Shown here one piece after another: positions 486 through 49,609 of a stretch of DNA of 64,000 nt. The position numbers were made by a program, and so were the translations under genes. Each line of letters starts with the position of its first letter. Position 1 is the stretch's first letter. This DNA comes from Thysanoteuthis rhombus (Eukaryota; Mollusca; Cephalopoda; Oegopsida; Thysanoteuthidae). The notes under the pieces are model-generated. The model was given only the letters and a program-made list of their open reading frames with translations, was not told the DNA's origin and ran no database searches. The stretch spans positions 41,071,750-41,135,749 of the forward strand of contig OY735227.1 in the NCBI GenBank assembly GCA_963457665.1, read 5' to 3'.

Positions 486-885
486 GTTCAACGCCCCTTA
501 ATTGCTTTCTTTCTTGGGGTTATCCAAAAAGCGGAATCTCAAGTAAACATCAATTCTTTTGTTGTAAGGGCCCTTATTATTCAAACTCTTGATTTTTTTT
601 TCATAGCAGTGGGATTGTATATGTCCACAGCATGTGGTTAGCAACAACTCGCCCTCCTCTGTGCCCACATCTCTTTATTTATTTATTTATTTTTCACAAT
701 GTTGGCGCTGATACTTTCTCTGCTCCTGTGCGATTCAATAGTCCCTCCTTATCCGCTGAGGATATGTTCCAAGGGGTGAATGGACGTTACTGCCGCGGAT
801 GTTTCAAATGCAGATATTTTGACCATGGACTTATCGGCCTTATTTTGTTCTTATAGGGGAAAAGTAACCAACAACGCGTAACTTG
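486..885. other. Unassigned stretch
   Basis: No feature recognised. A 74-codon open frame at 632-856 has no family resemblance and no copy elsewhere in the window. The last 13 bases (873-885) form the left target-site duplication of the SINE that follows. Confidence 0.5.
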
Positions 886-1249
886 GTATATCTCTGAATT
901 TTTGAGATGAGGTATTATTATTATTTCTATTATTATTCGGACTATCCTCATTTTGGTTGTTTTTCATTTGCTCCGGTTGTCCATATGGACACATAGCGTA
1001 ATGGTTACAGAATCAGACAAAATAACTGCCAGTAATCTGATGGTTCTAGGTTCAATCCCAGTGTGAGACAATAATAATACTACTAACGCTAAGAGGGGAG
1101 TGTGGTCAATTTACCCCCGTCGCTTATATAAAGGGTTCGGTTCGTTACTTCCCCACACCTACCAGATGATACCTGATGAAGGCCGTAGAGTACAACGGCC
1201 GAAACGTTGTATGAAAAACAACCAAGATGAGGATAGTCCGAATAGAAAT
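886..1249 (+). mobile_element. SINE-E copy 1: tRNA-headed foldback SINE with hammerhead-like hairpin
   Basis: The 13-bp word AACGCGTAACTTG stands at 873-885 and again, perfectly, at 1250-1262, so 886-1249 is one insertion with a target-site duplication. Inside is a tRNA-like RNA polymerase III promoter: A box near 994-1008 (TAGCGTAATGGTTA) and B box at 1049-1059 (GGTTCAATCCC). A body follows, then CTGATGA (1173-1179), a hairpin, and GAAAC (1201-1205). The first ~80 bases are the reverse complement of the family's 3' end, giving inverted termini. Other copies lie at 10765, 12291 and 41497, with a fragment at 49566. The duplication length fits target-primed reverse transcription. Mobilisation in trans by a LINE or Penelope-like element is inference. 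Confidence 0.75.
1173..1222 (+). ncRNA. Hammerhead-like core motif in SINE-E copy 1
   Basis: Layout seen: CTGATGA (1173-1179), stem GGCCGT (1181-1186) pairing perfectly with ACGGCC (1195-1200) across loop AGAGTACA, then GAAAC (1201-1205), then GTTGT (1206-1210) pairing with ACAAC (1218-1222) across a 7-nt loop. Hammerhead ribozymes have CUGANGA, stem II, GAAA and stem III in this order. The cleavage triplet expected right after stem III is not seen (sequence is CAA, not UH), and stem I pairing is not obvious. The hairpin is well supported; catalysis is not. Confidence 0.45.
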
Positions 1250-1389
1250 AACGCGTAACTTGAAATGAAATGGAACCATAATATTTAAATCTAATGAAAT
1301 TTATTTGATGTTTATTGTTCCATTTTAAAAAAAAACTTTTTATTGATAATTTCTGTTAATTTATTTATCAATTTAAAAAAAAATTATTT

Positions 1390-10764: not shown

Positions 10765-11056
10765 AGATGGGATGGTTCTAGGTTCAATCCCAGTGTGAGA
10801 CAATAGTAATACTACTAATGCTAAGAGGGGAGTGCGGTCAATATACCCCCGTCAGTTAAATAAAGGGTTCGGTTCGTTACTTCCCCACACCTACCAGATG
10901 ATACCTGATGAAGGCTGTAGAGTACAACAGCTGAAACGTTGTATGAAAAACAACCAAGATGAGAATAGTCCGAATAATAATAGAAATAATAATACCTCAT
11001 CTCAAAAATTCAAAGATATAGTATCAATACTTTGTTTATTGATAGCAGCTGTTGTA
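10765..11056 (+). mobile_element. SINE-E copy 2
   Basis: Begins inside the tRNA-like head just before the B box (GGTTCAATCCC, 10784-10794), so the A box is lost. The body, hammerhead-like hairpin (10905-10937) and a full 3' terminus (AATAATAATACCTCATCTC with a following ttcaaagat) are present. Imperfect words ATTAATTGCAAG (10753-10764) and ATTAATTGAAAG (11057-11068) could be a target duplication, but they are AT-rich and weak. Confidence 0.65.
10905..10951 (+). ncRNA. Hammerhead-like core motif in SINE-E copy 2
   Basis: CTGATGA (10905-10911), stem GGCTGT (10913-10918) with ACAGCT (10927-10932), GAAAC (10933-10937). Compared with copy 1, a C-G pair has become T-A on both sides of the stem, a compensatory change, and the first pair became a G-T wobble. 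The GTTGT...ACAAC second hairpin is intact. Confidence 0.45.
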
Positions 11057-11499: not shown

Positions 11500-12290
11500 A
11501 CGTTTTTACTAAAAAAAGAAAGAAAGAAAGAAAATAACACATCTTTTTGATCTGATCAAAAGTTTATTTTATCAGTACGAAGATGAAAACAAATAGTATT
11601 TTACGATATGAATATTATATAATCATATTTTTTTTTCTCGAAAAATAAGTGAATTTCACCGATTAGCCAATTTTACCTATTTGGCGTAATGTATATACTG
11701 TATACTAAGACATACATTTGACTAATTGACGTTGAATACGAACAGTATGTACTTACTCCGACTTACGATTAAATTCGGTCGTAACCTGGAGACTGTATTG
11801 TCGGACTAGAAGGTGCCTTTCAAGGGAAATTAGTTGAAGAGGATGTAGATTATGTCTAAGTATCTGTGGAGGTTTGTGCTGTTGTTTATGGAGGAAGGTA
11901 CTTAGAAAGATAAATAGAAAGAAGATAACCGTAAGAGCCAGGAGCTTCAGTTAAGTATTGATCTCAGCGACTGTAGATGTTCAGGCACTTTATGGGGGTA
12001 CTGGATGGCATAACGATTACCCACACGGAAAACGGAATCGGCGAAGCGACCAAGAAATAGTGCCCCTTCGGAAAAGCATGAATTCACTTCTTACCCCGTT
12101 ATAAGTGAATAGCTGTTAAAACCCTTTAGACTTGTATGACAGTGCAACTCAGAGGAGATTACTTTGATAGCAAAAAAAGCTAACCAGATGTTTAGCCCCT
12201 TAGGAAGACCCGTGGTAAATACTGCCTCAGTGTTTTTCTTGGCTTCCAGGGAAGGAAACACTGGGCCCTATCATTGATTTTAAAGTAATC
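11500..12290. other. Unassigned stretch
   Basis: A short (AAAG)n run at 11516-11532. Nothing else recognised. Confidence 0.45.
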
Positions 12291-12560
12291 TAATGGTTCT
12301 AGGTTCAATCCCAGTGTGAGACAATAATAATTCGAAAATACTACTACTGCTAAGAGGAGATTGCAGTCTATATACCCCCGTCAGTTAAATAAAGGGTCCG
12401 GTTTGTTACTTCCCCCACACCTACCAGATGATACCTGATGGAGGCCGTAGAGTACAACGGCCGAAACGTTGTATGAAAAAAAAAACCAAGATGAGGATAG
12501 TCGGAATGATAATAGAAATAATAATAATACTTCATCTCAAAAATTCAGAGAGATGTTAAA
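12291..12560 (+). mobile_element. SINE-E copy 3
   Basis: Starts near the B box (GGTTCAATCCC, about 12302), lacks the A box, and keeps the body and a 3' end of TAATAATACTTCATCTCAA then ttcagagagat. The hammerhead-like core is mutated at one conserved base: CTGATGG (12435-12441) in place of CTGATGA. The stem GGCCGT/ACGGCC (12443-12448, 12457-12462) and GAAAC (12463-12467) are perfect. Confidence 0.65.
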
Positions 12561-12879: not shown

Positions 12880-13205
12880 GAACCATTTCAAATAAGAGTT
12901 TCAATATGATATAACGCAATAACCATATATCCATTTCTTAGTAACATAATTGTCACGTTGAAAGAAACAAATACAGCAGATATTGACTGTGAATAAACAA
13001 GACGGGAATTTGGAGTAGAAAGAATTATTTGGGTCATCGTATTACCAGAGGCTATTTAGCTAAATTGTAAGAGTAACGCCACGTTGAAAGGAGGTACCCT
13101 TTCAGTTGCAGGTTCAATTCCTGCAGCAGCTCCATTTTCTTTAACTGTTCATTTCATAGACGTTGTTTAGACCAAATGATACATCTACCGCGTAATAACG
13201 AACGC
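12880..13205 (+). mobile_element. SINE-A copy 1 (tRNA-like)
   Basis: Body words GTTTCAATATGATATAACGC (12898) and gttgaaagaaacaaatacag precede a tRNA-like region at about 13047-13133. This has A box TTTAGCTAAATTGTAAGAG, B box GCAGGTTCAATTCCTGC and a cagcagctcca end. The acceptor stem does not close, so it is not a functional tRNA. A 325-bp tandem copy follows. Confidence 0.65.
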
Positions 13206-18894: not shown

Positions 18895-20320
18895 CCGATT
18901 TCATTAGAATAGATTTTATATCATTCTGTTCTGCAGAAACTAGCAATTTCTTCTTTTTTAGAATTTGTAACTTTAAACAAAAACGTATTTTCTATAAATG
19001 GAGAAGAATTATTAACATGCCAACTTTTTTTAAAGACAATGTAAACTCTTCTCAACATCAAAGACTTGGTCGCAACGTTTCGGCCGATTCGTTTCTTTTC
19101 CTTACTGATATTACATTTTACACCTGAAGAATGTCTTAGTGATGAATCAGTCGAAAGGGCGCGACTATATCGAAGATAAGAACAGTTTAGTTTGTCTAAA
19201 TATCTAATTGTTTAAAGTAACTAAAGATTTAGATTACGTGTGAAGACAACTCCATTCGATGATTTTACAAGCATACATCTGTAGTGCGCTGGATATGACG
19301 AACAAAAAAAAAACAAAAACGTCTTAATGCTCAGACCTAAACTTCAGCTTGATCCGAACAACTCCACACACGCTCAAGTAGTTGAGATCTTGTTATTACA
19401 GATCTAGCCACAAAAGGCGTGGTCGACGAACAACTGACTTACAATGTAGACATCTGTTTCCTCGCTCGAGTTTATTGAAAAACTAGTTTATCTTTGCCGT
19501 CAAAAAATGGCGGCTGTATCAAAATACTTTTACTGTTGCATTGTACTTTCGAAGTATTGAAAAAATTACGAAGCATTTTCTTGTGTATTTATAAGCTAAA
19601 TGAAACCGGATCTTTTTTTTCACATCTAAAAAAAATGGGAAAAAAAAGCAAAACAATAAAAAAAATAGTAATAATAAGGGAGGCTACTCTACGATTAGCT
19701 TTTATCAGTTATCTCCCTGGACAAATTCTACAGACAGAAAGTATAATCCATCGCCTGGCTTATTATATAAGTAGATGATAAACACTTTTAAGCAGAGCAG
19801 CTATTCCATTCCCGAACTGGGTAATAAGCAAGCAAGTAATCTAAAACTCTTCACCATTTAATGGAATGAATTACTGTGTGAGTTCTGAAAGATAGTTTTT
19901 GATGAGACAGTGGGCGGAGGAACAATTTGGAGTGGTTTTAGCCTGGGTTGCGGTGGGGGTCTGGTTTTGATAGTCGCTTCTCAATACGCCTAAATCCTCC
20001 AATTTTCTGAAATCGAATATCATAAGCCGCAGACTAGAATGATTAATCATAAAGATAAGATTGAATAGACACATATCAATTGTGACACTCATTTCTGTAT
20101 TTATTCATTGAACTAATGCATTCCTTGTTTGTATCTTACTGCAGACGGCTTTGTTGCTGCCGGCACAACTTAAGGCGTGGATTTATTTATTTATTTTCCC
20201 TTGTTACTTCTTTCCTCTTTTTTTTTCTTTTCTTGTTTTCGTATTTTATCACTTTTTTTTAAAAAGAAGTATTGACTTATGGCGAATTATGTATACACGG
20301 TAATGTTTAAGCTGTGATTA
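18895..20320. other. Unassigned stretch
   Basis: Nothing coding recognised. One possible decayed CTGAAGA...GAAA module at 19124-19156 and a GCAACGTTTCGGCC word at 19072 resemble the SINE-E hairpin vocabulary. AT-rich otherwise. Confidence 0.4.
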
Positions 20321-30129: not shown

Positions 30130-30440
30130 TATTCATTTTTATTATTAGATAAAGTATTGTGAACGATCTCATTAATTTGGACTAGTACAGAATTTTATCC
30201 TAATTTTGAATTGTCTTTATCACAGCTCAATTCTTTTATTACGATCCACTGTTTGTTCACTGTCGTAGATTGACGGTCTAGGTTGGTTTAAGATAAAAAA
30301 AAACAACTGAATATTCACCGTCACAGTCAATAATTAAACAACCATAGCGTCAAAAGGGAAAGGAAAAGATATCACTCAGACCCAACGTTATAAACGTTCT
30401 CGTCATTTTAGAAAAAAGATTCTGTTTTACCAATATCACA
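30130..30440. other. Mostly unassigned; repeat L fragment
   Basis: 30285-30365 is a reverse repeat L end (cacagtcaataattaaacaa). Nothing else recognised. Confidence 0.4.
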
Positions 30441-30451
30441 TTCGAATAGAA

Positions 30452-30545
30452 CACCTGACGGTAGCTGGAGAAGGGATCGTCCGAAACGTCGTGTGAAGAA
30501 GACAAACAACATGAAGGAGTTCAATCGTCCGGAAAACTCTTTGAA
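30452..30545 (+). ncRNA. Hammerhead-like module, diverged
   Basis: CTGACGG (30455-30461), an interval whose GACG (30457-30460) can pair with CGTC, then GAAAC (30483-30487), then GTCGTGTGAAGAAGACAAACA. The 3' layout (hairpin with purine loop, then ACAAC) follows SINE-E, but the base CTGANGA is broken at its last position. Likely a distant relative or decayed copy. Confidence 0.3.
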
Positions 30546-33801: not shown

Positions 33802-33896
33802 GGATTCGTTACAAAAAAATGTTTATGTTTCAGCCCTGTTTGGGCTTCACCTGAAGAAACCCAAACAGGGCTGAAACATGTTTGTGTAGTGAATCC
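33802..33896. repeat. Repeat M palindrome with CTGAAGA...GAAAC
   Basis: Perfect 19-bp arms TGTTTCAGCCCTGTTTGGG (33826-33844) and its complement (33860-33878), with imperfect continuation out to GGATTC (33802-33807) and GAATCC (33891-33896). The right side reads CTGAAGA (33851-33857), a CCC...GGG hairpin, then GAAAC (33873-33877). Partial copies lie at 14212-14265 and 60925-60985. Confidence 0.75.
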
Positions 33897-41450: not shown

Positions 41451-41496
41451 TAAGAATGAAATATGCCTTTGCGTTTTTCTAACATAAATTGTATAT

Positions 41497-41642
41497 TATT
41501 TCTATCAATATTCGGACTATCCTCATCTTGATTGTTTTTTCATACAACGTTTCGGCCGTTGTACTCTACAGCCTTCATCAGGTATCATCTGAATATTAAT
41601 AGAAATAATAATAATACCTCATCTCAAAAACTCAGAGATATA
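41497..41642 (-). mobile_element. SINE-E copy 4: 146-bp mini-element with hammerhead-like hairpin
   Basis: Flanked by ATAAATTGTATAT (41484-41496) and ATAAATTGCATAT (41643-41655), a 12/13 target duplication. On the minus strand it consists of the family's inverted 5' terminus, then a direct jump to agatgatac, CTGATGA (41575-41581), stem GGCTGT/ACGGCC, GAAAC (41549-41553) and the 3' terminus. Everything between the inverted end and the hairpin, including the tRNA-like head, is gone. It shows that the inverted 5' end belongs to the family and is not a chance neighbour. Confidence 0.7.
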
Positions 41643-41674
41643 ATAAATTGCATATCTCTAACATATTTTTTGTA

Positions 41675-49565: not shown

Positions 49566-49600
49566 AGACGGCCGTAGGATACAACGGCCGAAACATTGTG
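49566..49600 (+). ncRNA. SINE-E hairpin fragment (copy 5)
   Basis: Perfect stem GGCCGT (49570-49575) with ACGGCC (49584-49589) across AGGATACA, then GAAAC (49590-49594). The upstream CTGATGA has been lost, so only the hairpin half survives. Confidence 0.5.
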
Positions 49601-49609
49601 TTAAAAAAA

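What the first reader, a model, noticed from the sequence alone, without database searches (positions are those of the whole stretch)
1173..1222. Hammerhead-like hairpin inside a tRNA-derived SINE, with covariation between copies
Seen: CTGATGA, six-pair hairpin, GAAAC, then a second five-pair hairpin, in copies at 1173 (+), 10905 (+), 12435 (+, CTGATGG) and 41581 (-), plus the hairpin half at 49570. Between copies 1 and 2 a C-G stem pair changed to T-A on both sides, and copy 4 has a T-G wobble at the same place, so the stem is kept while its sequence changes. Known: CUGANGA, stem II, GAAA is the hammerhead ribozyme core, and hammerheads occur in Penelope-like elements and some SINE-like repeats. 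Inference: this SINE carries a working or former self-cleaving RNA. Against: no UH cleavage triplet after stem III and no clear stem I.
Basis: partly seen in the sequence, partly recalled or inferred. Interest (0 to 1): 0.8.

Follow-up and report, generated by a model that had tools for sequence, protein, structure and literature searches.

The report
Penelope-driven SINE with minimal hammerhead motif
The hammerhead-like RNA motif is real but comes from a Penelope-like retrotransposon, whose 3' end makes up a tRNA-headed short element that appears to be copied by the Penelope enzyme, an unusual partnership that also hints at how Penelope elements insert.

Summary
The sequence is there. The claimed covariation is not: in 100 listed of 2,944 genomic copies, paired changes match independent CpG decay (3 double changes, 4.4 expected). 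With stem III reduced to ACGU, as printed for Penelope-like elements (PLEs), GUU is the triplet and AUAC/GUAU is stem I; this descriptor, written afterwards, has 3 window hits and 1 hit in 200 shuffles. The 'SINE' is the 3' end of a PLE family in the same 2.73-Gb genome: tRNA-like head, minimal hammerhead, and the PLE ORF start up to two ends like the two internal RT starts of the Anolis PLE. Tile counts are 1,161 (PLE coding), 1,196 (leader) and 4,084 (tRNA head), so the head seems to start its own amplification. Insertions show PLE hallmarks: inverted arms, 8-15 bp target duplications, one long plus one short end in 30 of 32. Best reading: a tRNA-headed SINE mobilised by a PLE; ten searches of open-access papers listed none. 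Ribozyme activity is untested; an extra A beside the core and a competing fold argue against efficient cleavage.

The parts
873..885 (.). Left target-site duplication of copy 1, AACGCGTAACTTG (13 bp)
   Evidence: same 13-mer at 1250-1262
886..967 (-). Inverted 5' arm of copy 1: reverse complement of the element's 3' end (unit positions 228-309, the long 'tail' end)
968..984 (+). 17 nt resembling the PLE leader that precedes the tRNA head in PLE copies
   Evidence: sequence
985..1070 (+). tRNA-like head; A-box-like TAGCGTAATGG 994-1004, B-box-like GTTCAATCC 1050-1058 (box consensus recalled; the script tested copy L017, the window letters were read by eye)
1071..1165 (+). Body, with a TATA-like TATATAAAG at 1125-1133 upstream of where the least truncated PLE copies start (promoter role inferred)
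1166..1249 (+). Start of the PLE reading frame (ATG at 1166, if that is the start codon: MIPDEGRRVQRPKRCMKNNQDEDSP..), ending at the short end
   Evidence: sequence
1169..1212 (+). Minimal hammerhead: stem I AUAC 1169-1172 with GUAU 1209-1212; CUGAUGA 1173-1179; extra A 1180; stem II 1181-1186/1195-1200; GAA 1201-1203; A15.1 and C15.2 1204-1205; GUU 1206-1208; predicted cut after 1208
   Evidence: hammerhead numbering recalled
1206..1222 (+).
1250..1262 (.). Right target-site duplication of copy 1
10772..11020 (+). Copy 2 (unit positions 57-308, 5'-truncated); hammerhead at 10901-10944
12283..12551 (+). Copy 3 (unit positions 47-304); hammerhead at 12431-12474 with core A9 changed to G
41484..41491 (.). 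Target-site duplication of copy 4 (CAATTTAT, second copy 41643-41650)
41494..41591 (-). Copy 4, sense part (unit positions 180-276, short end); hammerhead at 41542-41585
41588..41642 (+). Copy 4, inverted arm (unit positions 254-308, long end)
49570..49607 (+). Diverged stem II + GAAAC half in another context, no CTGATGA

Best explanation
The 309-bp unit is a tRNA-headed SINE whose body and tail are the 3' end (pseudo-LTR plus ORF start) of a Penelope-like element family in the same genome. Proposed working: RNA starts at the tRNA-like head (Pol III inferred), runs through the minimal hammerhead and into the first 30 to 42 codons of the PLE frame. The PLE protein (RT plus GIY-YIG endonuclease) recognises that segment, cuts both target strands 8-15 bp apart, and primes cDNA from both strands at two internal start sites about 35 nt apart, each used once per insertion. 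One cDNA becomes the sense copy, the other a shorter inverted arm. The hammerhead-like motif is the minimal, helix III-less PLE hammerhead carried along in that segment. Shown here: shared sequence, step in copy number at the head, arms, target duplications, one-long-one-short rule, RT domain and GIY-YIG homology of the PLE. Inferred: Pol III transcription, trans-mobilisation, the cutting and priming steps, any RNA cleavage.
For: PLE coding sequence, then a leader, precedes the head in L032 and L004. Of 20 PLE loci fetched, 17 carry the unit downstream of the coding part, 15 of them with the head; 4 also show its 3' part in sense at the 5' end, from position 176 and 181 in the two least truncated. 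L051 ORF has RVT_1, E 2.4e-9, and its RT-to-C-terminus part aligns (E 6e-12, 3e-6, 2e-5) to 3 of 7 loci that pass the Pfam GIY-YIG cut-off. Copies with up to 3 mismatches: PLE coding tile 1,161, leader 1,196, tRNA head 4,084, tail 17,551; controls 0. Target duplications of 8 bp or more in 26 of 50 copies against 1.1% of shuffled flank pairs. Inverted arms in 32 of 50; 30 of these 32 have one long and one short end, none two long, one two short (L087), one unclear (L079) (Fisher 5.7e-8 on 31); 10 of 10 PLE loci with both ends scorable agree. The two ends resemble the two internal RT starts and 'tail' of the Anolis PLE (PMC11167929, main text read). Minimal hammerhead descriptor: 3 window hits, 1 in 200 shuffles.
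Against: The hammerhead descriptor was made after seeing the sequence. Window copy 1 itself keeps 17 nt of leader, so it may be a truncated PLE product and not a head-started RNA. In the 20 tail-selected copies only 4 start at unit position 1-3; others start near 136-139, 179-184 or elsewhere. Tile counts allow 3 mismatches and can be skewed if tiles diverge at different rates. The tRNA head scores below Rfam's cut-off in window copy 1 and in the PLE loci scanned. Pfam does not score the GIY-YIG domain of this PLE directly. No transcription data. One organism, unnamed, so no test of how old or widespread the SINE is.
Confidence: 0.8

Rival explanations
1. The hammerhead is an active ribozyme in the SINE or PLE life cycle, working as a dimer (two motifs pairing their ACGU) or with the PLE protein's help, to trim transcripts.
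For: Core, triplet, stem I and at least 5 of 6 stem II pairs intact in 60 of 86 aligned copies, 3 of 4 window copies, 14 of 20 arms from PLE loci (3 of the 86 are the same DNA fetched twice). Core position N7, the one that hammerheads leave free, is the core position that differs most (T 61, C 23 of 86). PLE minimal hammerheads are reported to cleave as dimers (review PMC7761336, passages and reference title), and the Anolis one only with protein (PMC11167929).
Against: A base between core and stem II in all 86 aligned copies (A in 85); Rfam models do not score it; the longer transcript prefers another fold (-17.9 against -12.9 kcal/mol) that uses the core bases; the main N7 change is also synonymous in the PLE frame; in the Anolis PLE hammerhead mutants still insert in vitro.
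Confidence: 0.3
2. The motif is kept for its coding and protein-binding role (PLE N-terminus and RT-start signal); the hammerhead likeness is a relic without cleavage.
For: The segment is in frame in the PLE ORF. The Anolis PLE needs the first 172 nt of its ORF in the template and starts reverse transcription there (PMC11167929). No significant covariation among copies.
Against: A review says all available PLE sequences carry hammerhead motifs, usually minimal (PMC6155905, passage), which coding alone does not explain; stem I, both core halves and triplet all fit at once.
Confidence: 0.4
3. There is no SINE: the short copies are 5'-truncated PLE insertions.
For: Copies with leader or PLE coding upstream exist (L014, L023, L026, L032 among the 30 best matches); most tail-selected copies are truncated at other places (16 of 20).
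Against: Copy number is flat from the PLE 3' coding end to the leader (1,161 and 1,196) and rises 3.4-fold between two neighbouring 35-base tiles at the tRNA head.
Confidence: 0.12
4. Inverted-repeat DNA transposon or fold-back element.
For: Inverted arms and target duplications.
Against: Arm length varies freely while the outer ends sit at two fixed sites, arms are not seen in 18 of 50, and the unit is shared with an RT-coding element.
Confidence: 0.02

Closest known systems
Minimal (helix III-less, dimeric) hammerheads of Penelope-like elements (Cervera & De la Pena 2014; Lunse et al. 2017: both seen only as cited in PMC7761336; the papers are not held)
   Same: Type I layout, core CUGANGA/GAAA, no more than ACGU in place of helix III, in the pseudo-LTR of a PLE, dispersed in thousands of copies
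   Different: One extra base between core and stem II; GUU triplet; carried by a tRNA-headed SINE
Poseidon PLE of Anolis, PAc (PMC11167929)
   Same: RT plus GIY-YIG ORF, hammerhead at the ORF start, two adjacent internal RT starts giving ends with and without 'tail'
   Different: Here each insertion shows one end of each kind (30 of 32); the 3' UTR carries a tRNA-like head
Bdelloid rotifer Penelope families (PMC3846280, passages)
   Same: Inverted pLTR upstream, 31-bp tail on one of the inverted pLTRs, pLTR holding the first 12 codons, 8-10 bp target duplications, solo pLTRs
   Different: Only several solo pLTRs are reported there and the passages mention no tRNA head; here thousands of head-bearing copies
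Metazoan non-LTR retrozymes (PMC7229834, passages)
   Same: Short non-autonomous elements with type I hammerheads, PLEs proposed as helpers
   Different: Retrozymes are tandem repeats with canonical hammerheads; this is a dispersed unit with tRNA head and a tail shared with its PLE
tRNA-derived SINEs with LINE tails (PMC10886601, introduction passage)
   Same: tRNA-derived head, and a tail like that of an autonomous partner
   Different: Partner is a PLE, not a LINE; inverted arms at insertion

Membership tests
Hammerhead ribozyme | Core CUGANGA and GAA with A15.1 and a UH step | tested here: met
   window copies 1, 2, 4; 73 of 86 aligned copies
Hammerhead ribozyme | NUH cleavage triplet | tested here: met
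   GUU at 1206-1208 in the minimal reading
Hammerhead ribozyme | Stem I and stem II | tested here: met
   stem I 4 of 4 pairs in 74 of 86, stem II at least 5 of 6 in 84 of 86; one unpaired base before stem II
Hammerhead ribozyme | Stem III within the molecule | tested here: not met
   only ACGU, which would have to pair with a second copy; PLE hammerheads are described without helix III
Hammerhead ribozyme | Match to a curated covariance model | tested here: not met
   E up to 10, 451 nt; E up to 1, 10 of 20 PLE loci
Hammerhead ribozyme | Covariation of stems among copies | tested here: not met
   stem II: (best p 0.09); stem I hardly varies
Hammerhead ribozyme | Self-cleavage | not testable with these tools
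   needs in vitro RNA
Penelope-like element (partner) | Reverse transcriptase | tested here: met
   RVT_1 E 2.4e-9 in L051
Penelope-like element (partner) | GIY-YIG endonuclease | tested here: met
   not scored by Pfam directly; met only through homology to L043, L044, L045, which pass the PF01541 cut-off
Penelope-like element (partner) | Repeated pLTR, inverted arm, two end types | tested here: met
   target duplications were scored on the short copies, not on the PLE loci
tRNA-derived SINE | tRNA-related head with A and B boxes | tested here: met
   boxes found; tRNA model 15.6-25.2 bits, below cut-off 29
tRNA-derived SINE | Copies start at the head | tested here: met
   3.4-fold step at the head; only 4 of 20 tail-selected copies start at 1-3
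tRNA-derived SINE | Pol III transcription | not testable with these tools
   no RNA data
tRNA-derived SINE | Tail shared with a LINE partner | tested here: inconclusive
   tail is shared with a PLE; no LINE search was run

The most novel reading that the evidence does not exclude
A third retroelement class, the PLEs, has its own tRNA-headed SINE parasite, and PLE insertion follows a two-start rule: the two cut target strands prime on the two different internal start sites of the template, one each, so a head-to-head insertion has exactly one tailed end. The PLE has taken the tRNA-headed promoter into its own 3' UTR, so autonomous element and SINE share one unit.
Probability: 0.55. Interest if true: 0.75.

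Novelty: new variant of a known kind. Interest (0 to 1): 0.6.

Why it matters
SINEs are described as users of non-LTR (LINE) machinery; a tRNA-headed SINE built on a Penelope-like element would extend that rule to the telomerase-related PLEs and gives many insertions from which PLE integration can be read. The one-long-one-short rule turns the optional 'tail' into a testable model: one start site per target strand. It also shows how a PLE minimal hammerhead can be spread genome-wide as a passenger, and warns that paired CpG transitions can imitate stem covariation.

Tried and rejected
Covariation among copies: rejected. Selection on the ribozyme inside the family: mean variation is 4.5% in 15 core columns, 2.0% in 8 stem I columns, 6.2% in 12 stem II columns, 5.8% in the other 47, so no clear constraint in these mostly dead copies. 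Cross-family covariation: a scan of all held DNA with up to 2 core mismatches gave only members of the same family, and the relatives at 30482, 44844, 19072 and 33820 are too decayed; not claimed. A genome count of minimal hammerheads with other spacers (103 against 29 in the reversed control) could not be read out. Pfam on 10 of 105 open frames of the window found nothing. Structure prediction was not used: loci taken from the genome are not on its stated list.

Papers: PMC11167929 main text read; PMC3846280, PMC7229834, PMC6155905, PMC3088659, PMC10886601, PMC7761336 passages only; all others from search listings. That a PLE-tailed tRNA SINE is not in print rests on the listings, all within open-access text; subscription papers and Repbase were not searched.

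Full report
What was checked. The hairpin-GAAAC pattern has 5 matches in the window and none in 100 shuffles. It is part of a large family: the 35-base tail has 17,551 copies with up to 3 mismatches in the 2.73-Gb genome, none in the reversed control.

Covariation. I left stem II free in a genome pattern (2,944 matches) and took the 100 that were listed. The pair reads C-G 61, C-A 20, T-G 16, T-A 3. Independence predicts 4.37 T-A; Fisher (greater) p 0.87. The neighbouring pair has 1 double against 1.3. Both pairs are CpG sites on both arms. In 86 aligned copies (copies whose match did not reach nearly from end to end of the 82-nt segment were dropped; 3 of the 86 are the same DNA fetched twice) the same pairs have 2 against 1.79 (p 0.57) and 2 against 0.56 (p 0.09). 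The changes look like CpG decay of dead copies. Stem I hardly varies, so it says nothing either way.

Hammerhead fit. PLE hammerheads are described as minimal variants lacking helix III, in the pseudo-LTRs, which may cleave as dimers (PMC6155905 and PMC7761336, passages). Read that way the window copy fits: AUAC-CUGAUGA-A-GGCCGU..ACGGCC-GAAAC-GUU-GUAU. Stem I is 4 bp, the triplet GUU is legal, and ACGU is self-complementary as a dimer would need. A descriptor (4-bp stem I, perfect core, stem II of 4 or more, 0 or 1 nt between core and stem II) finds copies 1, 2 and 4 and has 1 hit in 200 shuffled windows. It was written after the sequence was seen. Against activity: the extra base, no Rfam match, and a competing fold of the longer RNA at -17.9 against -12.9 kcal/mol. 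Transcripts that stop at 1212, 1216 or 1220 fold with stems I and II in place, plus extra pairs that use core bases; at 1225 the competitor wins. In the Anolis PLE the hammerhead needs the PLE protein and is not needed for insertion in vitro (PMC11167929).

What the element is. Blast of the 30 best genomic matches (of 40 scored, 1,693 candidates) showed inverted fragments of the element itself against its 5' end, and some copies run upstream into a coding end..CVYSIPCSCGHEYTGETCRPLKVRVEEH.., read as a PLE endonuclease end. A search with the RT part gave 150 scored matches out of 887 candidates; I fetched 20. Eleven of the 20 have open frames of 559-865 aa. L051 carries RVT_1 (E 2.4e-9). Its C-terminal domain is not scored by Pfam, but the protein aligns to 3 of 7 loci that pass the GIY-YIG cut-off. 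The C-termini of 7 copies chosen for long frames are 96-100% identical, which suggests recent activity. In 17 of the 20 loci the unit lies downstream of the coding part, in 15 with its tRNA head; 4 show its 3' part again at the 5' end, starting at 176 and 181 in the two least truncated. In L051 it runs in frame into the ORF (..MIPDEGRRVQRPKRC.. with KNNKDED following). So the hammerhead-like segment is also PLE coding sequence.

Why a SINE and not only truncated PLEs. Tiles of 35 bases with up to 3 mismatches count 1,161 (PLE coding end), 1,196 (leader) and 4,084 (tRNA head), controls 0. The number is flat over the PLE end and rises 3.4-fold between the leader tile and the head tile, one base further on. 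About 2,900 head copies therefore lack the leader, which points to starts at the head. The head holds A- and B-box-like sequences and the unit has no TTTT run, compatible with Pol III; the transcription itself is inferred. In 20 copies picked by their tail alone, 4 begin at position 1-3, 3 at 11-21, 3 at 136-139, 3 at 179-184 and 7 elsewhere; the 136-139 group includes a subfamily with other sequence upstream. Copy 1 of the window keeps 17 nt of leader and may be a PLE-started product.

How it inserts. Of 50 copies (30 best matches plus the 20 tail-selected), 26 have direct repeats of 8 bp or more at the outer ends, against 1.1% of mismatched flank pairs (40 shuffles); 20 have 10 or more against 0.05%. 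Copy 1 has AACGCGTAACTTG at 873-885 and 1250-1262, copy 4 CAATTTAT at 41484-41491 and 41643-41650. 32 of 50 have an inverted arm. The outer ends fall at two places, near unit position 273 and near 308. In 30 of 32 one end is long and the other short (16 arm-long, 14 sense-long), none has two long ends, one has two short (L087) and one arm ends at 291 (L079); Fisher p 5.7e-8 on the 31 that could be classed. One of the 50, L009, is window copy 1. All 10 PLE loci, of 20, in which both ends can be scored obey too, and so does window copy 4. The Anolis PLE protein starts reverse transcription at two adjacent internal sites and cleaves and extends both strands; the sequence between the sites is the 'tail', and no difference in start site between strands was seen there in vitro (PMC11167929). 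Rotifer PLEs carry the tail on one of the inverted pLTRs (PMC3846280, passages). The simplest model is that the two cut strands prime on the two sites, one each, in one complex. SINE and PLE copies obey the same rule, which is the best evidence that the PLE machine copies the SINE.

Verdict. A tRNA-headed SINE made of, and most likely moved by, a Penelope-like element, carrying that element's minimal hammerhead motif. Membership in PLE-type minimal hammerheads is supported by layout and place, not by model score, covariation or activity.

Noticed in passing
window 33820-33894: A second PLE-like head-to-head piece: inverted arms around CCTGAAGAAACCCAAACAGGGCTGAAACATGTTTG; Rfam Hammerhead_1 at 33845-33894 scores 21.3 bits (cut-off 34; E 1.7 for the window; E 0.0048 in a 181-nt stretch).
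   Followed up: partly
window 30440-30530 (+): CACCTGACGG...CGTCCGAAACGTCGTGTG: decayed relative of the PLE motif with GUC triplet and ACAC/GUGU flanks; stem II not intact.
   Followed up: partly
window 44844 (+), 19072-19085 (-), 49570-49607 (+): Further GAAAC + TTG-type fragments in other contexts.
   Followed up: no
L073 (minus strand, near 227) and L030: SINE copy L073 is inserted beside another GACCGAAACGTTGTG..AACAAC hairpin, and L030 holds two similar ones: a GAAAC or GAACC + ACAAC hairpin shared by several contexts.
   Followed up: no
G000 genome, e.g. C46:5910241-5911099: CTGANGAN{8,18}GAAACGTCG matches 103 times against 29 in the control, three of them within 0.9 kb: possible other minimal hammerheads or retrozyme-like repeats; letters could not be read.
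   Followed up: no
genome pattern: Among the 100 listed matches of CTGATGA N16 GAAAC (951 in all, 240 in the control) another partly palindromic repeat recurs, of the type CTGATGACATTGTAATGATATCAGAAAC.
   Followed up: no
window 13050-13132 (+): A tRNA-like sequence just over Rfam's cut-off (30.2 bits) near copy 3, possibly another tRNA-headed repeat.
   Followed up: no
L076, L077: A subfamily with the same tail but a different, AT-rich sequence upstream of unit position ~136 in place of the tRNA head.
   Followed up: partly
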